Below are positions 1-31,561 of a stretch of 31,561 nt of DNA, piece after piece (positions within the stretch are counted from its first letter, which is position 1; each line of letters begins with the position of its first letter). The notes beneath the pieces were generated by a model. The model saw only the letters and a program-made list of their open reading frames with translations. It was not told the DNA's origin and searched no databases. Location of the stretch: contig QNGA01000018.1 in the NCBI GenBank assembly GCA_003298465.1, positions 1 through 31,561 of the forward strand. Reading direction: 5' to 3'. Made by a program: the position numbers and the translations under genes. The DNA is from a halophilic archaeon. Its GTDB lineage: Archaea > Halobacteriota > Halobacteria > Halobacteriales > Haladaptataceae.

Positions 1-127
1 GCTCGCCGTCGCCGAACCCGACAGGGTAGGCGGCCGCGTGGTGGTAGTGACCGACGAGGAACGGGTCGAGGTGGTCGCTCTCGTCGACCGGGGCGCCCGT
101 CTGATTCGAGAGATAGGCGACGTCGCC
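1..127. repeat. Terminal direct repeat, left copy (circular contig overlap)
   Basis: These 127 bases are identical to 31435-31561. The helicase frame interrupted at base 1 continues without a break when base 1 is joined to base 31434, so the repeat marks a circular molecule rather than true linear ends. A length of exactly 127 is what an assembler working with k=127 leaves on a closed circle, so the second copy is probably an assembly artefact and not biological terminal redundancy. Confidence 0.93.
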
Positions 128-778
128 CAGTGTCGGGGGCTCGCGTCCGAACGGCGTCGCGACACCCGCCGTCTCCAGGGGCGTCCCGGGCGCTGTCGCG
201 GTTAGTGCGTTGAAGACGGTGCTCGCGCGCCATCCCCATCCGCGGTCGTCCTCGTCAGGCGAGGCGTTCGGGTCGACGTCCGGCGCGAACCGGTCGACGA
301 CGTCGCTCCGTAACTCGACGCCGGACTCCGGGTCGAGCAGTGCCCGCGTCGTCTCACGGAGGTCGTCGAGGCTCTCGTCTACTTCGCCGCCACAGACGTC
401 CTCGCGGAGGTACGGGTGGAGGTCGGGTTTCCCGACCAACTCGATGCCGGGCGCTGTCGGTTCATGCGGGCCGCTGGCGCGGTTGATAGCGCGGGCCTCC
501 TCGACGAATTGGGCCAGTTGCGTTTTCACGGGCGTCACGGCGAGCACCCGCGAGAGAGGCGTCGCGTCGTCGCGCACCATCGTCAGGCCGGCGGTAAGCG
601 CGATAGCGGTCTTGCCGGTCCCGCACGCGCCCTCCATCGCGAGATACCCGCCGTCGCCGACGACGTCGAGCGCGTGCTCGATACCGGTCGCCTGGCCCTC
701 ATATGGCTCGTCGAACGGAAACACCGTCTCCCACAGACGGCCGGAGCGCCCGCTGTCGTCCCCGTCAGCGGTGGTCAT
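1..778 (-). CDS. XPD/DinG-type superfamily 2 DNA helicase, N-terminal part (continues at 31434 on the circle)
   Basis: Joined across the window ends, the gene runs from ATG at 778 to the stop at 29648 and encodes 854 aa; this part holds the first ~259. Walker A GACGTGKT lies at residues 50-57, in the EGACGTGKT context usual for haloarchaeal Rad3/XPD/DinG-like helicases. These are ATP-driven 5'-3' helicases of replication and repair. The family normally has four cysteines ligating a 4Fe-4S cluster between motifs I and II; here only C129 (EDVCGG) and C278 (GLCPHK) are visible, so the cluster may be absent or altered. The ATG overlaps the stop of the primase-helicase gene as ATGA, which suggests translational coupling in a shared replication operon. 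The start is well supported by this overlap and by Walker A lying close to the N-terminus. Confidence 0.88.
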   Translation of the reverse strand, partial: MTTADGDDSGRSGRLWETVFPFDEPYEGQATGIEHALDVVGDGGYLAMEGACGTGKTAIALTAGLTMVRDDATPLSRVLAVTPVKTQLAQFVEEARAINRASGPHEPTAPGIELVGKPDLHPYLREDVCGGEVDESLDDLRETTRALLDPESGVELRSDVVDRFAPDVDPNASPDEDDRGWGWRASTVFNALTATAPGTPLETAGVATPFGREPPTLGDVAYLSNQTGAPVDESDHLDPFLVGHYHHAAAYPVGFGDGE

Positions 779-3700
779 GCCCCGCCCCCCGCCGCGACGT
801 CGGCGCCGCCGCCACCATCGTCGGGTGGTCTGAGACACCGGTCGCCGGCAAGGCCGAAGACGTCGCGCGCCCATGTCACCCAGTCGAGGGCGTCACTGCT
901 CGCAACGCGCTCACGGAACTCCCGAATCGCGGCTATCTGGAACCCGCCCGACGAGGAGACGACGGACAGCGCCGCCGTGAGCGTCGCGACGTCGGCCGTG
1001 AACGGCTCGCCCTTCCGCCGGACGTAGTTCCCGCGGTCGAACAACCCGACGTCTTCGAGGGCGTCCGCCCAGTTGTAGACGGTTCTCTCGGAGACGTCCA
1101 TGCCGGAGAGACGCGCGAACCGGTAGAGTTCCGCGCGGAAGTTCGACACCTCGCCGCCGTCCTGGCCGGCGAGGCGCTCCGGGCGGAACCCGTCCGGGCC
1201 GTCGCCGTCGATGGCCTGACGGAGGTTCGCGAGCAGGTCGAGCGCGCCCTCCGGGACGGGGAGCATCGCTTTCAGCGGGTCGGCCAGCTCATCGAAGCCC
1301 GCGACCGTGTCGACCGGGATGTCGAGCGGGACGTTCGTGAGGAGATAGGCGTTCTTCTGGCCGTCCTCGTCGGCGAGAATCGGCCGTATCCGGTGGAGCG
1401 CCTGGACCAGTTCGCTCCGGCGTCCGTCCCGGAACAGCGCGCCGGTGAGCCCGCTGAAGTGCTTTGTCGGGACCGCACGCCCTCGCCCGTCGTCGTCCTC
1501 GTAGAGGAGTTTCCGGTAGACGGGCGGCTCGGCGCCGTCGCGGGTCGAGTATTCGGTGCCACCGACGCGGACGTCGTCGCGGTGCATCGCGAGCAGGTGT
1601 GCGTCCCGGCGGATGTCGCTCGGTCGGAGGTGAGGCGCGCCGATGCAAACGACGGCGTCGCACTCGGGGCGGTCGAGGCCGCGGAGGCCGTAGTAGTTGA
1701 ACACCTCTCCGTTGTCGGGGAAATCGAACATCTGTATCAGTTTCTTCTTCACAACGAACAGCGGGCGGTCATGAACCCGCCCGGCCGTGTCTATCGTCTT
1801 CTGGATGCGGCCCTGGGCGGTGCTGCTGTCCTCGATGGTGCCCGCGTGGTACTGGCCGTCGAGGACTTGCGTGACGTTCAGCCCCGGCATGGCGGCGTTC
1901 TCGTCGCCAGTGACGACCGGGGGGCGGTCCTCGCTGGTCCCGAATAGCGCGCCGAGGACGTCCGGCTCCGGTGTCGCGTCGAGGACGAGCGTCCGCGCCG
2001 GCGCCGGCAGGTCGGCCGCGAGTGGAAGCTCGCGGAACAACAGGCCGGTGTCCGTGCTCGCGTCGCGCTCGCCGTCGAGCGAGGCCCGGGCGCGGGCCCG
2101 GATGTCGTCGCGAACGAGTGTGTCGTACTCCTCGCTCCAGCCGCATTTGACACACCCGCGAGCGCCGTTCTGGTCGGTGAGCTTCCCGTCGCACCCGCGC
2201 GTCGGGCAGGTGTCGAGGACGTCCGGCGCCGCGATAGCCTCCATCGCCGCGGTCTCGTCGAGGCCGGCGCGAACAGCGAGCGCAAAGAGGGCGTCGAGCG
2301 CCATCGGCTCACCCGTCCATTCGTCGTCGCGCATCCGGGCGAGGACGCGCTCGTTATACGACAGTTTCAGGCGGGCCAGCGTCTCCCCCGGCATCTCCTC
2401 CTCGGTATACTCACCCGCAATGGGGTCTTGCGTGACGCGGTGGGTTCCCCACTTGAACCGGGGGAGAGCGATGCCATCGAGGCCGTCGGGCGCTCCCGAG
2501 GCGTCGGTTATCACGTCGACCGCGCGCCGGGCGAGCGCCGCCAGTCCCGCGTAATTCGCCGCCTCCGGCTCGGGCGCGGTGTCCGCCATATCGTCGAGCG
2601 CGTTCCCGAGCCGCGTCAGGTCGCCGACACTGAGCCGCTGCTCGCTCTCAAGGAGCCCCTGGAGGTCGTCAATGATGAGGCACTCGGCGTTCCGCACCGT
2701 CTTCTGAGTGGCGTAGTCGTGGACCGTGACGACCCGGTCGGCCTTCTGCGCGTCGTCGTATTGGTCTTGCCACGCGCACGTCTCGCCATGCCAGGGGTGC
2801 TCGTCCTCGTCGGACAGCCCGAGGAGTTCGTGCGCTTTCTGCGGGCCGATATGTGCGGCGAGCGCCTCGAAGCGCGCGCGGACTGGGTGGTCCGCGCCGA
2901 GGTCGTAGACGGGACACATCCGCGGACAGTTCCGCGTATCGCCGTGGTCCGGGCACTCGTCGTCATGCACCCGCGCGTCCATACAGCCACCCTCTCGCGG
3001 CTGTGCGGCGCCCTTGAGATGTACGTAGCCGTCCGGCTTCGCGTCGTCCTGCTGGAACTCCCGGGCGTTCTCATGCTTCGGGAGGAGGACAGCGTGCTCT
3101 TTGTCGCGACGAGCAGCGGCGCGCGCCGCGTTCGTGGTCTTGCCGGCGCCCGCGTCGTCCGCCCACACTTCGAGACGGTCGCTCGCGAGCCAATCGTCGA
3201 AGCGCTCGCCCTGGAGCGCGTCCCACCGGTCTCCTTGGTCGAACGGGACGGTGTCGTACGCGGGCGGTTCGCACTCTTCGACGCCAGCGGCCGACGCGGG
3301 CGTCTCACCCGCCCCGGACGCCCGGGGCCGGCCGGCGTCGACGCCATGCTCGTCTTCGAGCCGGTCGAGCGCCTCGTTATAAACGTCCGTCGGGAGCCAT
3401 CCATCCGCGAGGTCGCCGCGGTCGGCGAGGGCGGCGTCCTCGACAGCGAAGTGCTGGAGTGCCTTCCGGGGGACGGGGTCGTCGACCGGGACGTAGCCCT
3501 CCCGTTTCGCGTGCAACCAGGCGGCGAGGTGCTCGGCGTCGTCGAGGCGCCCATTCGGGCGGGCGGCGTCCCGCTCGTCGGCCTCGACGAGCAGGTACGA
3601 CAGCGGCGTGTACGCCTTCCCATGCTTGTAGTCGTAGGCGAAGTTCTCCGACGAGGAGACGACGAAATATTTCTCGCTCTCGCCGTGGTGACCGAGCGGG

Positions 3701-5109
3701 TTCTTCCCGCGGTAGCCGTCGGAGAGGCCTGCGACCGTCGTGATATCGAGGTCGTACAACGCCGTCTGAGAGTCACTACTCCCGCCGCTCGGTCCGGCGT
3801 CACCGCCACTGTCCGCGCCCGAACCCGTACCTGAGACCGAGGCCGCGTCGTCGGAGGCGGCGTAACTGGTCGCGCGCGCCTCGTCTATCGCTGCCTGTTT
3901 CTCGTCGTAGGCACGATGCTCGCTCGCCGGTTTCGCGCTCGCCAGTATCGGCCGGAGCGTGTCACTCCATTGCTGGAGGTAGTCGTCGAGGTCGACCTTG
4001 TCGAGGCCGAATCGGGGGAGGGTGCCGAGGCGGACCTCCACGTCGCCATTGAGTTGCGCGCCCGTCCTAACCGCGCCTTTCACGCCCTCGCCGAACTGCT
4101 CGACCGTCAGACTCCCCTCATCGTCGACGTCGCTCGTCGGCCGCTCGGCGTCCTGAACCACGTAGATGCGCGGGATGTCGTAGTCGTCAATGACGTCCCG
4201 AACGACGTCGATATCGGCGGTCTTGAATTGCTTCGTGACGGGTGAAATGCACGGGTAGCCGGCCTCTTGCGCCGTTATCGCGTCCGCGATACCCTCCGTG
4301 ACGAGCACCGGCTCGCCGGCCTCGATGCTGTCGAGGCCGAACACCGGCTCGCTCGCCCGGCTGTAGGGTTTCGTCGTCGCCGGTTTCGCGTACTTCCCCG
4401 ACATGTAGTCGGCCGGGTGACCGTCGTAGCCAACGTCACCGCCGCCATTGTCGCCAGTCGCGCGGGCGATAGCGAACACAGGCCGCCCGTCGGCATCGGA
4501 GTACGGCAGGACGTAACTCCCCTTCCAGAGCGGGGTGAGGTCCTCGTTGAACAGGCCCGTCGCGAGAATCGTCGCCCGCTCGTACCCCTCGGCCATCAAG
4601 TGGTCGAGGAGGCCCGTACGGGAGGGCGGCGCCCACCCGAGCTTGTGCTCGTCGATGGTGTCGGCGTCCCATCCACGCCCCTCGAAGTAGTCGCGCGCCG
4701 TCGTCGGACGCTCCGGGTGCCCGCCAGCGTCAGTATGGTCGCGAATCTCGCGGTCAATTTGACCGTGGAAATACTCGATGGCATCCGCGAATGCTTGCTT
4801 CCACGGCGCGACACCGCCGTTAGGCCCGCCGGCGTCGTCGTCGGTCTCCCCGGCGCTGCCGTCGGTCTCGTCGGCCCCGTCAGCGTCCTCCTCGCCGGCG
4901 AGGACGACCGCACGGGGCTCGCCGAGGTCGTTGTCGACGGCGACGAGCGCGTCGGTGTCGCGGAGCGACATCGTAATCTCGCGCTCGCTGTACCCGACCG
5001 CCGATGCCTGCCCACGCACCTCGTCGAGCGGGACCGGCTCGCCGTCGTCGAGGTCGAGGTATCCCCGCGTCTCGCGGAGTATCTCGCGCCACTCGATGCT
5101 CGCCGTCAC
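775..5109 (-). CDS. DnaG-type primase fused to a helicase-like ATPase (plasmid replication protein, 1444 aa)
   Basis: Residues ~114-190 resemble the DnaG catalytic-core N-terminal half (GRGWDADTIDEHKLGWAP). A TOPRIM fold follows at ~266-325, with VTEGIADAI carrying the catalytic Glu and VVQDAE in the DxD position. After an Asp/Ser/Gly-rich linker (~410-450) comes a second half with Walker A at ~650-658 (DDAGAGKTT), a Cys/His cluster at ~709-732, Walker B LIIDDLQ at ~811-817 and a four-Cys zinc ribbon at C968/C973/C986/C989. A superfamily-2 motif VI-like QALHRIRP lies at 1236-1243, and the C-terminus looks winged-helix. I infer a protein that unwinds DNA and lays primers for plasmid replication. 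The start is GTG, chosen because GGAGG stands 6 bases upstream. It is the first of two overlapping replication genes. Archaeal chromosomes use a different primase (PriS/PriL), so a DnaG-like replicative primase here is plasmid-specific. Confidence 0.82.
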   Translation of the reverse strand: MTASIEWREILRETRGYLDLDDGEPVPLDEVRGQASAVGYSEREITMSLRDTDALVAVDNDLGEPRAVVLAGEEDADGADETDGSAGETDDDAGGPNGGVAPWKQAFADAIEYFHGQIDREIRDHTDAGGHPERPTTARDYFEGRGWDADTIDEHKLGWAPPSRTGLLDHLMAEGYERATILATGLFNEDLTPLWKGSYVLPYSDADGRPVFAIARATGDNGGGDVGYDGHPADYMSGKYAKPATTKPYSRASEPVFGLDSIEAGEPVLVTEGIADAITAQEAGYPCISPVTKQFKTADIDVVRDVIDDYDIPRIYVVQDAERPTSDVDDEGSLTVEQFGEGVKGAVRTGAQLNGDVEVRLGTLPRFGLDKVDLDDYLQQWSDTLRPILASAKPASEHRAYDEKQAAIDEARATSYAASDDAASVSGTGSGADSGGDAGPSGGSSDSQTALYDLDITTVAGLSDGYRGKNPLGHHGESEKYFVVSSSENFAYDYKHGKAYTPLSYLLVEADERDAARPNGRLDDAEHLAAWLHAKREGYVPVDDPVPRKALQHFAVEDAALADRGDLADGWLPTDVYNEALDRLEDEHGVDAGRPRASGAGETPASAAGVEECEPPAYDTVPFDQGDRWDALQGERFDDWLASDRLEVWADDAGAGKTTNAARAAARRDKEHAVLLPKHENAREFQQDDAKPDGYVHLKGAAQPREGGCMDARVHDDECPDHGDTRNCPRMCPVYDLGADHPVRARFEALAAHIGPQKAHELLGLSDEDEHPWHGETCAWQDQYDDAQKADRVVTVHDYATQKTVRNAECLIIDDLQGLLESEQRLSVGDLTRLGNALDDMADTAPEPEAANYAGLAALARRAVDVITDASGAPDGLDGIALPRFKWGTHRVTQDPIAGEYTEEEMPGETLARLKLSYNERVLARMRDDEWTGEPMALDALFALAVRAGLDETAAMEAIAAPDVLDTCPTRGCDGKLTDQNGARGCVKCGWSEEYDTLVRDDIRARARASLDGERDASTDTGLLFRELPLAADLPAPARTLVLDATPEPDVLGALFGTSEDRPPVVTGDENAAMPGLNVTQVLDGQYHAGTIEDSSTAQGRIQKTIDTAGRVHDRPLFVVKKKLIQMFDFPDNGEVFNYYGLRGLDRPECDAVVCIGAPHLRPSDIRRDAHLLAMHRDDVRVGGTEYSTRDGAEPPVYRKLLYEDDDGRGRAVPTKHFSGLTGALFRDGRRSELVQALHRIRPILADEDGQKNAYLLTNVPLDIPVDTVAGFDELADPLKAMLPVPEGALDLLANLRQAIDGDGPDGFRPERLAGQDGGEVSNFRAELYRFARLSGMDVSERTVYNWADALEDVGLFDRGNYVRRKGEPFTADVATLTAALSVVSSSGGFQIAAIREFRERVASSDALDWVTWARDVFGLAGDRCLRPPDDGGGGADVAAGGGA

Positions 5110-5835: not shown

Positions 5836-6744
5836 ATGCCGACCGACAAACCACCCCAAAGCACTGACAGGAAGCGCGGCGTTCTGACAAGCACCGACAT
5901 CGAGTTCCTCACTGGCGTTAAGGACGTCGAGGAAGGCACCCAGCGCGCCCGCAACCAGCGAGCAGGGCTCCGCGAACGCCTGTTCTCTGCCCTCCTTGAT
6001 TTCACCCTCATATTCCAGCATCTTGAAGACCGTGACATTCGGGCCGTGTTCGACTACAGCGACGGGGCCGGGCGAGAGCACTTCTCACAGGGCGTAAGCG
6101 ACGCTATCGCCTTCTTTCACTACGCCGACCCAACCACCTTCGAGACCAGGCTCGACCGCGGCCTCCGCCGCTCGCGTATCCGCTCGAAGACTCTCGCCGA
6201 CGTCGACATCGACATCGACATCGAGGACACCCGCCCCCTGCGAGAGGTCGAGCGGACCGTCGACGACAGCGGAATGGCCTACGCCGACGAGCTTCAACTC
6301 CTCGAATTCCACGACGCCGTTCCGATGGGCGTCCGAACCCCGCCCGGAACGCGGAGCGACCATTACGGCATCCCCGAGGACACCGCCGACCCGTACGAGG
6401 CGCTGAAACTCGTCCACCTCCCAACCATCCCCGAAGGAACCCGCGACGACCTCGACGAGAATAGCCCCGAGGTCCAGCGCGCACTCCGAGCGGCATACGA
6501 TTTCCTCGCGAAACTCCAGGACGACGATATCGACGAAAACACCTACGCCGAGCGCCTCGCCGACCACGTCTACCCGATGTACCCACTCGGGTTCGACGAC
6601 CCCGCCGACTGGTGGACGAATCTCGTTCTCCCAGTCCTCTCGCGCATCGTCAAAGACGACGACGTTCAAGGAGACCTCACACACGTCCCCTGGGAGAACC
6701 AAACTCTCACCACCGACGAGGGCGAGGACGAGCCGAACGATTGA
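5836..6744 (+). CDS. Conserved haloarchaeal protein of unknown function, 302 aa
   Basis: The N-terminus (KRGVLTSTDIEFLTGVKD, then ARNQRAGLRERLFSALLDFT) is a pattern I recognise from uncharacterised proteins of haloarchaeal plasmids and viruses. There it starts near residue 13 and is followed by helical sequence. The remainder is acidic, with an unusual DIDIDIED run at ~123-130 encoded by repeated gacatc codons, and shows no enzyme motif or membrane segment. It is transcribed alone from the divergent promoter shared with the replication operon, which hints at a plasmid maintenance role. I do not assign a function. Confidence 0.8.
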   Translation: MPTDKPPQSTDRKRGVLTSTDIEFLTGVKDVEEGTQRARNQRAGLRERLFSALLDFTLIFQHLEDRDIRAVFDYSDGAGREHFSQGVSDAIAFFHYADPTTFETRLDRGLRRSRIRSKTLADVDIDIDIEDTRPLREVERTVDDSGMAYADELQLLEFHDAVPMGVRTPPGTRSDHYGIPEDTADPYEALKLVHLPTIPEGTRDDLDENSPEVQRALRAAYDFLAKLQDDDIDENTYAERLADHVYPMYPLGFDDPADWWTNLVLPVLSRIVKDDDVQGDLTHVPWENQTLTTDEGEDEPND

Positions 6745-7286
6745 CATCCTCCCGACAGACACCCCCGAAAAACGGAGAGCGCCTGAAACGGGGGAAATCT
6801 CTACTTCGCAATCGCCGCTATGGAATAGTTCCTTAACGCCGATTGCGAAGTAGAGAATTCGGGCGGCTCAGCGCCTCTCGCCGATTTCGCCGTTTTTGCG
6901 CGAGTCCCCGCCGCCCCGACCGGTGGGACAGCCCGGCCGGGCGTGGCACCGGAGCGGTCGCTGGTCTCACGGTGATTGGAGAGTGCGCCCGAGGTGGGAC
7001 AGTGGAAAGAGGAGAGAGGGGAGACGGCAGATACTAATTACGCACACGAACCTATGGCTCGAATGACTCGATTCCCTCGAATGAACCGATAGACCTGGAG
7101 GGAGACGGACGGGAGGCTCGACATCCTCGTCGTCCGTAGGACGAATCCTGTGTGTGCCTCATGACGTGGGCTCCTCCCTCGTTTTCTGTTTCGGGCGCGG
7201 TCGCCAAAAAACCCCGCCTCGCGCGAACGCGCTCGCGGGCGCGCCCGATAGCTTTTTCCGGCTGGGATACGTGTTGTGAAAGTGTT
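6745..7286. other. 542-bp intergenic region with palindromic element copy 1
   Basis: No convincing gene is seen. It holds the first ~90-bp palindromic element (6783-6871), a GTGGGACAGCC motif near 6926 that recurs near 23171, and two TCGAATGA repeats at 7059 and 7078. There is a small hairpin CGTCC-GTA-GGACG near 7129 and a GC-rich inverted stretch just before the next gene. A TTG-started frame beginning in the palindrome (6843-7037) is arginine-rich and looks non-coding. Confidence 0.6.
6783..6871. repeat. Long palindromic element, copy 1 (29-bp arms, 31-bp centre)
   Basis: Left arm 6783-6811 and right arm 6843-6871 are imperfect inverted repeats; the inner part CTACTTCGCAA / TTGCGAAGTAG is perfect. 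The centre contains GGAATAGTTCC, itself a small palindrome. The same element occurs at 22763-22851 and 23021-23110 in the same orientation. Candidate roles, none proven, are a priming or replication hairpin, a resolvase or transfer site, or a structured RNA. Confidence 0.85.
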
Positions 7287-20014: not shown

Positions 20015-21400
20015 CTATGCTATTTTCGTGCCGTTGAGCGTCACGCCCTGGAGCGTCGCGCCGCCGTTGCGAATCACCGCCGCCTCCGACGCGTTCCACC
20101 CTGGCGTCCGAATCGAGACGTTCTGAACGCGGACGTCGCCGGCTCCCTCGTCGATAACGAGCGCCATGGTCGGCGTCCCCTGTATCGTCACGTCGATGTT
20201 TCGGAGCCGCGCCTTCTCGACCCCTGTCTGAACGGTGATACTCCACCCCGTCGGAACCTTCTGGACAATCTTGGTGTCCGTAACCGAGCACGTCCCGTCG
20301 TCGAGGCGAATCGGCCGCTGCTCGAAATAGTAGTCCTCGTCAAACGATTGGTCCGTGACTATCCCGCACTTGTGAATCCGGGAGTTATCGCCCCCGATGC
20401 GGATATTCGACGGATGCGAGTTCGCCGTTACACAGTTGACGACCTCGACCGTCCCGTCGCCCTCGCCAGGCTGGCCGCCAATCGCGTAGATGCCGTTATC
20501 CGGCCACCCGCCCACTTGCGCGTTCTCGACGCGGAGCCGCCCCTGCATTTGCGGGTGGCCGGCGATGCCCGTCGTCGACAGTGAGCGGTCCCGAGGCCCG
20601 CCGAGGCTCCGCGTGTCTCGGTCGTTAATCGTCTTCTGGAACGTCTTACCACCGAATCTGAAATCGAGGTCCCGGGCACGAATCGTCGCGTCCTCCGTCG
20701 CCGGGTGGAGCCGGAGCGGCCCCTGACAGCCGAGCGAATGCATGCCGACTTGCCGGAGCCCACGGACCTCCGACGTCCCCGACGTATGGTGATTCAACAC
20801 CTGCATGCCCGCGTTCTTCGCGCGCCAGTCGAGCGTAAACCCGCCGAACAGAAACTTCCCCTCATGCGGCGACTCAGGCACGCCAATTTTGAAGTGCTGG
20901 GCCGGCCCCGTGAACTCGCCGCCGTAGACGTCGAATCCCTTAATCTCCGTCACCGAGCCGTGAACGAGCGTCGCGTTCTCGCCGAGGATGCCGACGTCGC
21001 GGAGACTCACGCGGCGAACCTGCGAGTTCATCTTGTACCGACCACTCGGGAAATACAGCAGTGTGTCGCTCGCTATCTTGTCCTGTATCACGGGGGTGAC
21101 GTCGCGCTCGCCCGTCGGGTCGGCGCCCGCCTCGGCCATGTTAATGACCGTCCCGAACTCCGACCGCCACCGGTCGACGTTGAGCGACGGTGACCCCCCT
21201 GCGGTCACGTTCCCGTTCGTGCTATTGCCACCGGCCGCCGCCGAGCCGGTGCTCCCGCCGGTTGGCATGAGAAGACAGCCGGAGGCCGCGGTCGCGCCGA
21301 CGGCCGCGCCGGTCGCGAGAAATGCGCGCCTATCTGTCGATGTCGATGTCGATGCCGATACTCCAGTGGTTTCTTGGGCCGCGGTTTCGTCGTCTGTCAT
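20015..21400 (-). CDS. Tat-exported lipoprotein with a right-handed beta-helix, 461 aa
   Basis: The twin-arginine motif TDRRAFLAT (R24-R25) is followed by a hydrophobic Ala/Gly segment and a lipobox AASGC with C42. The protein should therefore be exported folded and anchored by lipid on the outer face of the membrane. A Ser/Gly/Asn linker follows. From residue ~100 the sequence repeats short beta-strand turns (FPSGRYKMNS, VRRVSLRDVGILGENA, RLRNIDVTIQG, VRVQNVSIRT), typical of pectate-lyase-like parallel beta-helices. I see no clear catalytic residues, so binding of a surface polysaccharide or a mating partner is as likely as glycan cleavage. It is transcribed separately from the secretion operon, behind a long structured leader. 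Confidence 0.78.
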   Translation of the reverse strand: MTDDETAAQETTGVSASTSTSTDRRAFLATGAAVGATAASGCLLMPTGGSTGSAAAGGNSTNGNVTAGGSPSLNVDRWRSEFGTVINMAEAGADPTGERDVTPVIQDKIASDTLLYFPSGRYKMNSQVRRVSLRDVGILGENATLVHGSVTEIKGFDVYGGEFTGPAQHFKIGVPESPHEGKFLFGGFTLDWRAKNAGMQVLNHHTSGTSEVRGLRQVGMHSLGCQGPLRLHPATEDATIRARDLDFRFGGKTFQKTINDRDTRSLGGPRDRSLSTTGIAGHPQMQGRLRVENAQVGGWPDNGIYAIGGQPGEGDGTVEVVNCVTANSHPSNIRIGGDNSRIHKCGIVTDQSFDEDYYFEQRPIRLDDGTCSVTDTKIVQKVPTGWSITVQTGVEKARLRNIDVTIQGTPTMALVIDEGAGDVRVQNVSIRTPGWNASEAAVIRNGGATLQGVTLNGTKIA

Positions 21401-24537: not shown

Positions 24538-24693
24538 TCAGGACTCATCGCTATCGTGAAACTCCCAACCAGCGGTGTCTAACAGCCGTTCGACGGCCTC
24601 GCTATACGTGATTCCATGCTCCGCCTTGTACCGACGTAGCTCGTCGCGCATCGACTTGGAGAGTTTCACCGTCGCCCGGTCGTCGTCCGTCAT
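24538..24693 (-). CDS. Ribbon-helix-helix DNA-binding protein, 51 aa
   Basis: MTDDDRATVKLSKSMRDELR followed by RYKAEHGITYSEAVERLLDT is a textbook RHH: the strand ATVKLS, helix 1, a turn, and the helix YSEAVERLL. It resembles CopG or VapB antitoxins, but no toxin gene follows; the next gene is the serine recombinase. The start ATG 24693 is directly preceded by three AGTAC repeats, likely its own operator. I infer a repressor of itself and perhaps of the recombinase. Confidence 0.82.
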   Translation of the reverse strand: MTDDDRATVKLSKSMRDELRRYKAEHGITYSEAVERLLDTAGWEFHDSDES

Positions 24694-24694
24694 G

Positions 24695-24717
24695 AGTACA
24701 GTTAGTACGATGAGTAC
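24695..24717. promoter_or_regulatory. Triple AGTAC operator at the RHH gene
   Basis: AGTAC occurs at 24695, 24704 and 24713, an exact 9-bp period, immediately upstream of the RHH start and downstream of a TTATGC box. Tandem short repeats beside an RHH gene are typical autoregulatory operators. Confidence 0.6.
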
Positions 24718-24994
24718 GAGAGGCATAAGCGTTCCCCGGTTTCCGTGACACCGAACCGGTCGCTCATCACCCGACCGCTCCACGAGTTAGTCGAGGCCAG
24801 CGTCTAATTACTCGACCCCGAGACGTGCGCGAGGCGCTCGTCGTAATTTGCTACACCCTCGCCGAGAGTGGCGGCATCCGCTTGATGACGAGTGGCCGTT
24901 CAGAAGCGCGACGACGCGGACGGCGCCTACCCCGTCCTCCGCGAAACCGAGGCCGCCGGCGAACCGCCTACAGACGGACATTTAGCGGGTTTAG

Positions 24995-28730: not shown

Positions 28731-28756
28731 GCGCCATGCGGGGGGTCGTGGAATGA
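28727..28756 (+). CDS. Possible 9-codon ORF bridging two genes
   Basis: ATG 28727 overlaps the stop of the ALLT gene (ATGA), and the frame MSAMRGVVE ends in a TGA that overlaps ATG 28753. It may simply carry ribosomes from one gene to the next. It may also be chance. Confidence 0.25.
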   Translation: MSAMRGVVE

Positions 28757-28938
28757 GCCATACGATGCCGGCCGCCGTCGCATGGCTCGGTCTTGCCGGC
28801 GTGATTCTTGGCCTGGCCGGCGCCCTCGCGTACTTCTTGTTCCCGGATAGTGAGAGGCCGAAATACGCCGTTGCGGTCGGCTTCGGCATCGTGTTCCTTT
28901 CCGACGTCGCCGACCATTTGTCTGGCACACTGTTTTGA
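28753..28938 (+). CDS. Small two-helix membrane protein, 61 aa
   Basis: Two hydrophobic segments (AVAWLGLAGVILGLAGALAY and AVAVGFGIVFLSDVADHL) are joined by a short charged loop (FPDSERPK). It is the membrane partner in the second copy of the ALLT-plus-membrane module. Its stop codon lies inside the first TGAATCA heptamer. Confidence 0.72.
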   Translation: MSHTMPAAVAWLGLAGVILGLAGALAYFLFPDSERPKYAVAVGFGIVFLSDVADHLSGTLF

Positions 28939-28964
28939 ATCACGACTGAATAAGTGGTGAATAT
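28936..28964. promoter_or_regulatory. Operator-like heptamer triplet at the RHH gene start
   Basis: TGAATCA (28936), TGAATAA (28947) and TGAATAT (28958) lie at an exact 11-bp period. They cover the 15-bp gap between genes and the start codon at 28963. The same heptamers form the larger array inside the gene, so the encoded RHH protein probably binds here to control itself. Confidence 0.7.
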
Positions 28965-29616
28965 GCCGCGACAGACCGCGATGCTCCCGGCTGAACTCAA
29001 GGCCTACGCCGAGTATCAGGCCGCGGAGCGGGGAATCTCGACCGCGGAGTACCTCCGCCAATTGATTCGCGAGGACTGGGTCGGCGGCGGTGAATCACGG
29101 CTGAATAACGGTGATTCATCCCGTGAATCAACAGTGAATAAGACTGATTCACTCCGTGATTCACCCGTGATTCAGGACTTATTCAGTCGGGTCGAGGCGC
29201 TCGAAGACGGCCAGGACCTCCCCGAGGACGCTCCCGGAACGGTGGCACGCGAGCCGGAGCCGGCGCCCGCCCAGGACGGCGGGACCGAGGACGTCGAGCA
29301 GGACGATAGCGCCTCCCCCGACGTCGACGGCGACGTCGATAAGCTCCTCGCCGACTGGCCGCCGCGTGGAGACCGCAAACGCGAGGAGCGGCGAGCGGTC
29401 GGCCGTGCGGCCCTCCGGTGGCTCCGCGACGAGGACGGCCCCCGCGGTCGCGGTGACTTTGAGGACGCCCTGCTCCCGGAGTACGCTGTCGACGGACAAA
29501 GCGCCGAGACGTGGTGGAGAAAGAGCGTCCGTCCCGCACTGAAAGCGGTCGACGCCGTCGAGTATCACCACGGGCCCCACACCTACGAGTGGACCGACGG
29601 GGAGAGCGGCGACTGA
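28963..29616 (+). CDS. RHH DNA-binding protein with C-terminal domain, 217 aa; gene contains heptamer array
   Basis: The start is ATG 28963, with GGTG four bases ahead; in-frame GTGs at 28954 and 28957 are possible. Residues 1-39 (MPRQTAMLPAELKAYAEYQA then AERGISTAEYLRQLIREDW) are an RHH domain. Residues ~43-74 are a polar Ser/Asn/Asp linker encoded by the heptamer array. A second linker (~80-125) is very acidic, and the C-terminal ~85 residues (ERRAVGRAALRWLRDEDGP, ETWWRKSVRPALKAVDAVEY) look like a winged helix. RHH proteins that sit on phased repeats act in plasmid partition (ParR/omega type) or copy control. I infer such a role. Confidence 0.78.
   Translation: MPRQTAMLPAELKAYAEYQAAERGISTAEYLRQLIREDWVGGGESRLNNGDSSRESTVNKTDSLRDSPVIQDLFSRVEALEDGQDLPEDAPGTVAREPEPAPAQDGGTEDVEQDDSASPDVDGDVDKLLADWPPRGDRKREERRAVGRAALRWLRDEDGPRGRGDFEDALLPEYAVDGQSAETWWRKSVRPALKAVDAVEYHHGPHTYEWTDGESGD
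29091..29185. repeat. Nine-heptamer phased array inside the RHH gene (candidate centromere or iterons)
   Basis: TGAATCA, its complement TGATTCA and the variants TGAATAA/TTATTCA start at 29091, 29102, 29112, 29124, 29135, 29145, 29157, 29168 and 29179. Spacing is 10-12 bp, about one helical turn, so all sites face one side of the DNA. A weaker TGATTCG lies at 29064. With the triplet at 28936 this makes 12 sites. Confidence 0.88.
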
Positions 29617-29647: not shown

Positions 29648-31561
29648 TTATTCGACGCCGTGCTCGCTCCAGAACCCCTCGATGGCGAGGTCGAGCATGT
29701 CCGGCGAGACCGCCTGAAACCCGGTCTGTTCCTGAGGCGAGAGGTGGCTATTGACGGAATCCCATCCGTCGGACGCGTATCGCTCGTCGATGAGGATTCG
29801 CGTCCCGACGTCGGCCCCTGAGCGAATCACGCGGCCGAACGCCTGACGGGCCTTCCGGACGGCGGGAATCGTCTTCGCGTACTCGTAGCCGTTCCCGAAC
29901 TTATCGCCGTATGCAGTCACGACGGCCTCCATCCGCGGCGACTGGCCGACGAGCGGGACGCCGACGACGGCCGCCGTGTGGAGGTCGTCGTCGGGGTAGT
30001 CGACGCCCTCGGTAATCGTCCCCCGGGCGCTCGTCACGACGACGCTCGCCGGGCCGGCCGTGAACTTGTCGAGCATCGCGTCGGTCTCCGCCGCCGAAGA
30101 CGATTGGTCGACGTGTACGGGCTTGCCGAGGCGGCTGTCGCCGTCGAGGACGTCGGCCGCCCATTTCGCTTCGCGATAGCTCGGCATCGCGAGTAGGACG
30201 TTCCCGGGGCTCCGCGCCACCTTCCGAATGGCGGTCGCGTAGCGCCGGCGAGTCGGCGTCATATCGCCAGAGTCCCGGACCGGGGCGCCCCGATTCTTAT
30301 ACGTGTATTTAGTAAGGCCGACCGCCAGGCTCTCGCGGTTCTCCTCGGGGAAGTTGAGGCCGAACGTCGCAGTCTCGACGGGGCGGCCGGTCTCCTCGGC
30401 GAACGCGTCGAGGCCGACGACCTCCGTATAGATGTCGAGCGGCTCCAGGGTCGCACTCATGACGACGCCGCCGCCTAACTCCTCGAAGACGTCGGCGAGC
30501 GCGTCCGCCGGCAGACAGTCGAACAGTTCGACCTCCGCCTCATAGCCGGCTTGCCACGGCGCCGGCGGGTTGTTCCGCCCACCCGGCGTGAGCGTGACGA
30601 GCGGGAAGTGGCGCGCGTCGTCCGCTGTCCGCCAGGCGTCGAGGAGCCGCGCGACGCTCCCAAAGCGATAATCGCGGTCCCGGGGGTGAGCGTCGAGTGC
30701 TGTCGCCACGTCCTGCTCGACGCGCGAGAGCAGCGTCCAGATGTCCGTCTCGTCCGCCGGGAGCGCGGCGAGGGCGTCGCGAACACTGTCCTGCTCCGGC
30801 GTCCCGGGGTCTCGGAGCGGGACCTCTTTCTCGGAGAGGTCGGCCGCGAGCGCGTCCTTGTTCCGGGCGGGCCAATCGTCGCGCCACTCCGGAGAGAAAT
30901 CGCCACGCCGACCAGTGTCGGCGTCGATGCCGTCCTCGATAGCGTCAGAGACGGCGCCCCGGGCGTGACGGACGAACGCCTCGGCCTCGGTGAGCCGCTC
31001 GACGACGGTGTCGATGTCGCGCTGTCGCTGGCCGTCCGCAACTGGCCCACGGACGGCCTGTCGCGCACGGTCGCGGAGGTTGTCGTTCGGGTCCGGCGCG
31101 TCCTCTCCCTTCCGGAGCCGGCCCTCAGTAAGGAGGAGCCGCGCCGCCTCGATGTCGCCCGCGGCGATGTCGAACGACGCGAACGGGACCGTCTCACTCA
31201 GATAGTCGCGTGCTTTCTCCTCCAGGCCGTGCGCCTCGTCGACGACGAGAAACGTATCCTCGTCGAGAATCCCCATTTCGCCGCGGGTCATGTGGCGCGT
31301 CCCGGGGTGTACGAGGTGATTGTAGTTTCCGAGCAGGACGCTCGCACTGGACCCGAGGTGCATCATGGCCTTGTGCGGACACAGGCCGGCCGATGCCGCG
31401 GCGCGAACGAGTTGCTCATGGTCGAGGACGTCCTGCTCGCCGTCGCCGAACCCGACAGGGTAGGCGGCCGCGTGGTGGTAGTGACCGACGAGGAACGGGT
31501 CGAGGTGGTCGCTCTCGTCGACCGGGGCGCCCGTCTGATTCGAGAGATAGGCGACGTCGCC
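29648..31561 (-). CDS. XPD/DinG-type superfamily 2 DNA helicase, C-terminal part
   Basis: This is the remainder of the 854-aa helicase that starts at 778 on the circle. DEAH box VVDEAHGLE is at residues ~323-331. A central domain follows, with motif III-type VVMSATLEP at ~581-589. The C-terminal RecA-like domain carries VVVTSARGTITEGVDYP (motif V region) and QAFGRVIRSGADVGTRILID (motif VI), both as in XPD/DinG. It probably acts with the primase-helicase in plasmid replication or DNA processing during transfer. Convergent with the RHH gene; 31 bases separate their stops. Confidence 0.9.
   Translation of the reverse strand, partial: GDVAYLSNQTGAPVDESDHLDPFLVGHYHHAAAYPVGFGDGEQDVLDHEQLVRAAASAGLCPHKAMMHLGSSASVLLGNYNHLVHPGTRHMTRGEMGILDEDTFLVVDEAHGLEEKARDYLSETVPFASFDIAAGDIEAARLLLTEGRLRKGEDAPDPNDNLRDRARQAVRGPVADGQRQRDIDTVVERLTEAEAFVRHARGAVSDAIEDGIDADTGRRGDFSPEWRDDWPARNKDALAADLSEKEVPLRDPGTPEQDSVRDALAALPADETDIWTLLSRVEQDVATALDAHPRDRDYRFGSVARLLDAWRTADDARHFPLVTLTPGGRNNPPAPWQAGYEAEVELFDCLPADALADVFEELGGGVVMSATLEPLDIYTEVVGLDAFAEETGRPVETATFGLNFPEENRESLAVGLTKYTYKNRGAPVRDSGDMTPTRRRYATAIRKVARSPGNVLLAMPSYREAKWAADVLDGDSRLGKPVHVDQSSSAAETDAMLDKFTAGPASVVVTSARGTITEGVDYPDDDLHTAAVVGVPLVGQSPRMEAVVTAYGDKFGNGYEYAKTIPAVRKARQAFGRVIRSGADVGTRILIDERYASDGWDSVNSHLSPQEQTGFQAVSPDMLDLAIEGFWSEHGVE
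31435..31561. repeat. Terminal direct repeat, right copy (circular contig overlap)
   Basis: These bases are identical to 1-127 and should be removed when the circle is closed. Confidence 0.93.

What the first reader, a model, noticed from the sequence alone, without database searches (positions are those of the whole stretch)
28936..29185. Twelve helically phased TGAATCA heptamers at and inside an RHH gene
Three heptamers cover the gene start at an 11-bp period and nine more lie inside the coding sequence at 10-12-bp spacing, without breaking the frame. The gene encodes an RHH protein, the fold used by plasmid partition and copy-control proteins that coat such repeats. This is the best candidate for the plasmid's centromere or origin iterons, embedded in the gene of its own binding protein.
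Basis: partly seen in the sequence, partly recalled or inferred. Interest (0 to 1): 0.85.

Follow-up and report, generated by a model that had tools for sequence, protein, structure and literature searches.

The report
Likely binding-site array within RHH gene
A circular plasmid of a salt-loving archaeon carries twelve regularly spaced copies of a short DNA word at and inside the gene of a DNA-binding protein, and some relatives repeat the layout with other words, so the gene probably contains the landing strip for its own product.

Summary
Twelve TGAATCA-like heptamers (7 exact, 4 TGAATAA, 1 TGAATAT) lie at 28936-28964 and 29091-29185, in one phase of an 11.0-bp period, at and in a ribbon-helix-helix (RHH) gene on a closed 31,434-bp haloarchaeal plasmid. 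Chance and protein constraint do not explain them: synonymous recoding yields at most 3 (plasmid codon usage) or 5 (flat usage) of the 9 intragenic copies. The main new evidence is comparative. Of 18 haloarchaeal RHH genes tested by DNA, 6 (this one included) share one word between the start region and the part behind the RHH-coding stretch, with five different words; 12 do not. Place is kept while sequence changes, so the array is most likely the cognate site array of the encoded protein. Autorepression is likely. A role as origin, handcuffing site or centromere is plausible by analogy with pSK41 RepA_N and lambda O, whose origins lie within their initiator genes, but is not shown: no ParA-like gene was found in 19 proteins scanned, this plasmid's GC skew does not turn at the array, and one relative sits away from any annotated replication gene. 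New variant of a known kind.

The parts
28936..28964 (+). Start cluster: three heptamers (TGAATCA, TGAATAA, TGAATAT) 11 bp apart just before and at the start codon
29091..29185 (.). Linker cluster: nine heptamers (6 exact TGAATCA, 3 TGAATAA, both orientations) at 10-12 bp steps, encoding residues 43-75
28963..29616 (+). Gene of the 217-aa RHH protein (P0001), stop codon included; a GTG 9 bp upstream is a possible alternative start
28963..29088 (+). RHH-coding part (residues 1-42; predicted helices 10-23 and 27-40)
   Evidence: AlphaFold2; mean pLDDT of residues 11-20, 21-30, 31-40: 93, 95, 80; Pfam FitA-like RHH weak and below cut-off
29134..29205 (+). Predicted short helices (residues 58-65 and 68-81), partly encoded by the array
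29323..29592 (+). C-terminal winged-helix-like domain (residues 121-210), shared with HFPV-1 ORF9, SNJ1 gp13, phalar02 and others
   Evidence: fold matches weak
28753..28938 (+). Small gene upstream, hydrophobic by eye (putative membrane protein); its stop codon TGA is the first three bases of the first heptamer
   Evidence: no PHROGs match
29648..31434 (-). Convergent DinG/Rad3-like helicase gene; the open frame continues across the circle junction to 892 in window coordinates
775..5109 (-). Primase-like gene (DnaG N-terminal-like domain), related to the large gene of plasmid phalar02

Best explanation
The heptamers are the cognate binding sites of the RHH protein encoded by the gene that contains them. 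RHH dimers load cooperatively on two clusters with one site per turn: the start cluster covers the start region and represses the gene; the linker cluster, whose first site is 155 bp after the first start site and in phase with it at 11 bp, is the larger array. Because the array sits in the stretch that encodes a flexible linker between the DNA-binding head and a separate C-terminal domain, protein and sites are inherited, and may be swapped, as one cassette. I conjecture that the bound complex also serves plasmid maintenance (initiation, copy control by handcuffing, or ParA-less partition), with the C-terminal domain as effector. Shown: sites, phase, selection at the DNA level, the same layout with other words in relatives. 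Inferred: binding and autorepression (the confidence given is for these two together). Conjectured: the maintenance role (about 0.5).
For: Non-random, phased array beyond what the protein requires. One word at both places in 6 of 18 haloarchaeal RHH genes, five different words: first start site at -41 to -15 from the ATG, linker sites from +113 to +142 onward. In pHTUR06 the word occupies all three frames and non-coding DNA. In 5 of the 6, recoding reaches the observed number in under 1% of draws in at least one of two settings. Of 15 related proteins (pHTUR06's own entry included) have two or more Asn-Thr pairs in the linker, as such repeats encode; two of the 11 new ones do too. RHH repressors of archaeal viruses occlude their own promoters and oligomerise along DNA (PMC5569661, passages). 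The RHH gene of pCBA1220-05 is convergent with and overlaps a D5-type primase gene; the window's is convergent with the helicase gene.
Against: 12 of 18 RHH genes show no such sharing, so the array is not needed for the family. The layout occurs in RHH-coil proteins without the winged C-terminal domain (L135, L139, L140), one with no annotated replication gene nearby. In pHTUR06 the convergent gene has only apolipoprotein- or phasin-like matches; its primase gene lies elsewhere. Relatives with the C-terminal domain but a winged head have repeats upstream, none that I saw in the linker. No ParA-like protein found; no skew turn at the window's array. In L140 recoding alone gives as many copies in 122 and 523 of 5000 draws, and exact copies in L135 in 522 of 5000. 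pCBA1220-05 is not phased (515 of 3000) and 4 of 275 real fragments of it score as high. In L139 one start copy overlaps an element that recurs before other RHH genes. No binding data.
Confidence: 0.6

Rival explanations
1. Pure transcriptional autoregulation: the start cluster is the operator, the linker cluster an auxiliary operator that loops to it or blocks the polymerase inside the gene. No replication or partition role. (Compatible with the site and autorepression parts of the best explanation.)
For: Start sites at -41 to +7 in the six positives fit promoter occlusion as described for archaeal RHH repressors. Same layout in short RHH-coil genes on large plasmids, one without annotated replication gene in the fetched region (L139). 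A start-side array without linker copies was seen by eye in L149.
Against: Nine linker sites are more than looping seems to need; in the window and pCBA1220-05 the gene abuts replication genes; in pSK41 and lambda, sites inside the initiator gene are the origin.
Confidence: 0.35
2. Replication origin: the RHH protein is an initiator whose iterons lie in its own gene, as in pSK41 RepA_N and lambda O, and the C-terminal domain recruits the primase or helicase.
For: Head, linker and tail with linker-encoded sites as in pSK41, where pPR9 swaps head and origin but keeps the tail (PMC5703833 section 14). Array 53% AT and start cluster 64% AT in a 65% GC plasmid, though other stretches are as AT-rich; convergent with the helicase gene. 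In pHTUR06 the cumulative skew maximum (2350) is about 0.6 kb from the linker array.
Against: C-terminal domain relatives occur in elements with unlike replication proteins (SNJ1 has a rolling-circle RepA). A vector with SNJ1 nucleotides 1-4481 replicates (PMC5350488 passages); gp13 probably lies outside, but those coordinates may follow an older record. The window's skew does not turn at the array. RHH-coil members lack the domain.
Confidence: 0.2
3. Centromere of a partition system without its own ParA, comparable to R388 StbA (nine-bp repeats spaced by two, i.e. an 11-bp period).
For: Same period as the stbDRs (PMC3098194 passages); an RHH centromere-binding protein is known in archaea, SegB (PMC12284271 passages); a conjugation-type plasmid may need active stability (inference).
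Against: No ATPase partner found; no stability data; StbA is not an RHH protein as I recall it.
Confidence: 0.2
4. The repeats are a by-product of a repetitive protein linker or of tandem duplication.
For: In L140, and partly L135, coiled-coil heptads place the word every 21 bp, and recoding explains L140; NTQP-type peptides repeat in frame in several proteins.
Against: Window copies lie in three frames and two orientations with rare codons (TTA is 4 of 445 Leu codons in the eight genes counted, the RHH gene among them); copies also stand before the ATG.
Confidence: 0.05

Closest known systems
pSK41 RepA_N initiator and its origin (staphylococcal theta plasmids)
   Same: N-terminal head binds several sites located centrally in its own gene; that stretch encodes a dispensable linker; separate C-terminal effector; pPR9 has another head and origin with the same tail (PMC5703833 section 14, read)
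   Different: Head is RHH, not the RepA_N winged helix; further sites at the start codon; archaeal; no replication function shown here
Phage lambda O protein and ori-lambda
   Same: Iterons in the middle of the initiator gene; dimers assemble a higher-order complex (PMC3985674 passages)
   Different: Four 19-bp iterons against short words every 11 bp; no relation found. That ori-lambda encodes an interdomain linker is recalled, not from a call
RHH repressors of archaeal viruses (SvtR, AvtR, F55); plasmid CopG
   Same: RHH fold, autorepression by sites over the own start, spreading along DNA (PMC5569661 passages)
   Different: The passages I saw speak of sites at or near promoters or distal to them, none in the linker of the own gene
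R388 StbA and its stbDRs
   Same: Repeats with an 11-bp period at the own operon; StbA needed for stability (PMC3098194 passages and start of abstract)
   Different: Repeats lie around the promoter, not in the gene; other protein
SegB of Sulfolobales
   Same: Archaeal RHH DNA-binding segregation protein with sites upstream of its operon and mostly inside genes (PMC12284271 passages)
   Different: Partner SegA; 13-bp palindrome scattered over the chromosome; no phased array in its own gene in the passages

Membership tests
Ribbon-helix-helix (CopG/MetJ/Arc) superfamily | RHH profile match over curated cut-off | tested here: inconclusive
   Window protein: FitA-like RHH 13.5 bits against 27. Relatives: pHTUR06 29.3, H. 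jeotgali p4 31.6, H. caseinilyticus p6 28.6 and H. jeotgali p3 20.6 pass RHH_1 (20.5); pCBA1220-05 does not (17.0)
Ribbon-helix-helix (CopG/MetJ/Arc) superfamily | N-terminal strand followed by two helices, as a dimer | tested here: inconclusive
   Helices 10-23 and 27-40 predicted; strand (residues 1-8) not formed in the monomer model; dimer not modelled
RepA_N plasmid initiators | RepA_N domain | tested here: not met
   Pfam scan lists only FitA-like RHH at E up to 0.1
RepA_N plasmid initiators | Sites in the linker-encoding part of the gene act as origin | not testable with these tools
   Sites are there; function needs an experiment
ParA-type partition system with RHH partner (type Ib), SegAB included | ParA/SegA ATPase gene with the RHH gene | tested here: not met
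   No ParA family hit in the 19 window proteins scanned; Walker-A frames of 100 codons or more are VirD4-, VirB4- and helicase-like plus two that look spurious
Single-protein partition (StbA-like) | Array needed for plasmid stability | not testable with these tools
   An 11-bp period is met; stability cannot be tested here
Type II antitoxin (FitA/ParD/CopG type) | Toxin gene next to the RHH gene | tested here: inconclusive
   Convergent neighbour is a helicase; the gene at 28446 matches only a PHROGs family of unknown function and the small upstream gene nothing

The most novel reading that the evidence does not exclude
Haloarchaeal plasmids have an RHH-based, self-embedded replicon cassette: head, cognate sites and linker form one exchangeable unit in which the gene is at once the operator and the origin or centromere, with the word read by the head evolving together with the copies inside its gene, an archaeal counterpart of lambda O and RepA_N built on an unrelated fold.
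Probability: 0.35. Interest if true: 0.85.

Novelty: new variant of a known kind. Interest (0 to 1): 0.68.

Why it matters
How small haloarchaeal plasmids are initiated and partitioned is, as far as I know, poorly understood. A gene whose product probably reads sites inside that same gene, with five different words in six loci, gives a ready set of protein-site pairs for working out RHH recognition, and a testable origin or centromere candidate. It would suggest that the in-gene array of lambda O and RepA_N arose again on another DNA-binding fold.

Tried and rejected
Search routes: no whole genome is held for the window. A protein search with P0001 found only the window's own product. P0001 and an alignment of relatives found no locus in genome contigs or viral contigs. 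A further alignment gave two SNJ1-like loci, another none. The plain lag scan did not pick out the window's array, whose steps and orientations vary. GC skew gave no origin at the window's array. Fold searches gave only weak matches, mostly winged-helix proteins in the PDB, none at E of 0.001 or better. The SNJ1 replicon paper is not held.

Choices and dropped rows. Dropped before the count of 18: L142 (Natronococcus AD-5; unannotated, frame disturbed, with CGAATCG repeats); the second copy of the H. jeotgali gene (NC_014299; identical protein; not fetched); short hits NZ_CP085304 and HG796347 (not fetched). The window's second RHH gene was not tested. Gene starts were chosen by me against annotation in three cases: pHTUR06 1593 (annotated 1803, which would leave out head and array; another entry starts at 1626, as P0003), H. 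jeotgali plasmid 3 at 196 (annotated 379), N. occultus at 6776 (annotated 6790). The set came from tblastn with relatives as queries (and L149, L150 from an alignment scan), so it is no random sample; some queries contain the repeat peptide, which may enrich positives. Site lists allow one mismatch; in the phase test I left out a few outlying one-mismatch copies (window 29063; pHTUR06 1822 and 2084; H. caseinilyticus 3326) and kept window 28958 with two mismatches. For L140, codon usage was taken from L135 of the same organism. Of the 17 records with the C-terminal domain, I looked at 7.

Recalled, not from a call: the parS site in B. subtilis spo0J (one search did not show it); operators of Arc, MetJ and omega; that StbA is not an RHH protein; that ori-lambda encodes a linker.

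Full report
What is there. The window ends in a 127-bp direct repeat of its beginning, so it is a closed circle of 31,434 bp, 65% GC. It carries VirD4-like and VirB4-like genes (weak, below-cut-off Pfam matches), a primase-like gene and a DinG/Rad3-like helicase whose frame crosses the junction. DNA and protein matches are to haloarchaeal plasmids and viruses. The finding concerns the 217-aa gene at 28963-29616, convergent with the helicase gene 31 bp away.

The repeats. Twelve heptamers: 28936, 28947 and 28958 before and at the start codon, and nine from 29091 to 29185. Seven are exact TGAATCA, four TGAATAA, one TGAATAT; five of the nine inner copies are inverted. A one-mismatch copy at 29063 is out of phase. 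The upstream gene ends in the TGA of the first heptamer. The twelve fall in one phase at 11.0 bp, across the gap between the clusters too (vector strength 0.96; 0 of 3000 jittered arrays). Shuffles, a motif-blind cluster scan and synonymous recoding (20,000 draws; maximum 3 with plasmid codon usage, 5 with flat usage, against 9) speak against chance and protein constraint. The array uses codons that are rare in this plasmid.

The protein. A database search with it found only the window's own product. AlphaFold2 with 22 sequences (mean pLDDT 75.8, pTM 0.46) gives two RHH helices, a low-confidence stretch at residues 45-57, short helices at 58-81 and a C-terminal domain at 121-210 that is confident from residue 141 on. 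The array encodes residues 43-75, between head and tail. The Pfam RHH match of the window protein is below cut-off; four of the five other array carriers pass RHH_1. The C-terminal domain recurs in HFPV-1 ORF9 (62% over 100 aa), SNJ1 gp13, HJIV1, phalar02 and pHTUR06. With P0008 as query, related domains appear in regulators next to lactate permease genes, so the domain by itself does not mark a maintenance protein; P0001 itself did not reach these.

Relatives. pHTUR06 of Haloterrigena turkmenica encodes a protein alignable over 98% of P0001 (29% identity) with another word, CGAATACG, at like places; the word is read there in all three frames and stands upstream too. This uses my choice of start (1593); the annotated gene begins at 1803. 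Of 15 proteins found with it, 9 including its own entry have two or more Asn-Thr pairs in the linker; their DNA could not be reached. tblastn of plasmids with relatives gave more RHH genes, and an alignment scan two in viral contigs. I scored 18 genes (15, 3) for one 7-mer shared between -70..+15 and +110..+270. Six beat the Markov control (0 of 300 each): window, pHTUR06, pCBA1220-05 (but 4 of 275 real fragments), H. jeotgali plasmid 4, H. caseinilyticus unnamed6 and H. jeotgali plasmid 3. Twelve do not; two of these are borderline (15 and 14 of 300; 12 of 245 and 28 of 261 real fragments). Positions are alike: start sites between -41 and +7, linker sites from +113 to +142 onward; pHTUR06, pCBA1220-05 and H. 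caseinilyticus also have copies in the RHH-coding part. Best period and phase control: window 11.0 (0 of 3000), H. jeotgali plasmid 4 10.8 (0), pHTUR06 11.4 (35), H. caseinilyticus 10.3 (50), pCBA1220-05 11.2 (515), H. jeotgali plasmid 3 10.3 with only four sites (311). Recoding, exact and one-mismatch sites, of 5000: window 0 and 0, pHTUR06 1 and 24, pCBA1220-05 6 and 0, H. caseinilyticus 2 and 1, H. jeotgali plasmid 4 522 and 1, H. jeotgali plasmid 3 122 and 523. The last is thus supported by shared words only. In the motif-blind scan the array is also top in pHTUR06 (4 copies, shuffles reach 4).

Relatives with another head. SNJ1 gp13, HJIV1, HFPV-1 ORF9 and HRDV1 share the tail but have a winged head. 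A lag scan, without a significance control, puts periodic repeats directly upstream of the gene: lag 11 is the best of all in HJIV1, lags 22 and 11 are among the best in SNJ1, lag 11 is fourth in HFPV-1, lags 8 and 12 lead in HRDV1. The HFPV-1 repeat is also the top 7-mer cluster (4 copies, at most 3 in shuffles); those of SNJ1, HJIV1 and HRDV1 are not. I saw none in the linkers. In phalar02 and pHV2 no phased array was found; only ACCATATTG-like words by eye. So phased sites at the own gene may be common in this group, and linker copies go with RHH heads in what I saw.

How it most likely works. The data fit sites for the encoded protein: place is kept, word changes. RHH repressors are known to occlude their own promoters and to spread (PMC5569661, passages), so autorepression through the start cluster is the safest functional inference. 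What nine more sites in the linker are for is open. The nearest precedent is pSK41 RepA_N, with Rep boxes in the middle of rep, a dispensable linker, and another head and origin in pPR9 (PMC5703833, section 14); next lambda O (PMC3985674, passages). Convergence with the helicase gene here and with a primase gene in pCBA1220-05 fits a replicon role. Against it: the convergent gene of pHTUR06 is no recognisable replication gene, RHH-coil genes lack the tail, and the window's skew gives no signal (in pHTUR06 the skew maximum lies about 0.6 kb from the array). I give about 0.85 to 'cognate sites of the own protein', 0.6 to that plus autorepression, about 0.5 to any maintenance role, and 0.35 to pure autoregulation.

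Novelty. Ten literature searches, of which I saw the listed rows only, showed no paper on linker-embedded arrays in haloarchaeal RHH genes; the library lacks most subscription papers, so this is weak. The layout is known from other initiators, so I call it a new variant of a known kind.

Noticed in passing
window 1-127 and 31435-31561: 127-bp terminal direct repeat: the contig is a closed circle of 31,434 bp.
   Followed up: yes
L005:5911-6011: HFPV-1 ORF9 is probably annotated 81 nt too long; 11-bp-spaced CGAACGAA copies lie just before the better start at 6011.
   Followed up: partly
L003 about 1816; L006 about 9484; L130 about 6881-6976: Periodic repeats directly upstream of the gp13-type genes of HJIV1, SNJ1 and HRDV1.
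   Followed up: partly
L137, L138, L139, L146, L147, L148, L150 upstream of the RHH gene: A recurring element close to CGTCTGACTGAA about 30-80 bp before haloarchaeal RHH-coil genes, perhaps a promoter part; in L139 it overlaps the first start site. Seen by eye only.
   Followed up: no
L149:2794-2874: RHH-coil gene with several GTAGAC/GTCTAC copies upstream, none seen in the linker (by eye).
   Followed up: partly
L142:2420-2520: Natronococcus AD-5: frame-disturbed RHH-coil gene with many CGAATCG-like repeats.
   Followed up: no
L135:4008 and L136:1014: A copy of the word covers codons 3-5, so part of the presumed DNA-reading strand is itself encoded by a presumed site.
   Followed up: no
window 29648-31434 and 1-892: The helicase matches PADLOC models of type IV CRISPR-associated DinG (best E 9e-65); no CRISPR genes were looked for.
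   Followed up: no
window 24541-24783: Second small RHH-like gene (weak matches) next to a serine recombinase gene.
   Followed up: no
window 20015-21400: Pectate-lyase-like protein gene within the plasmid (weak Pfam match).
   Followed up: no
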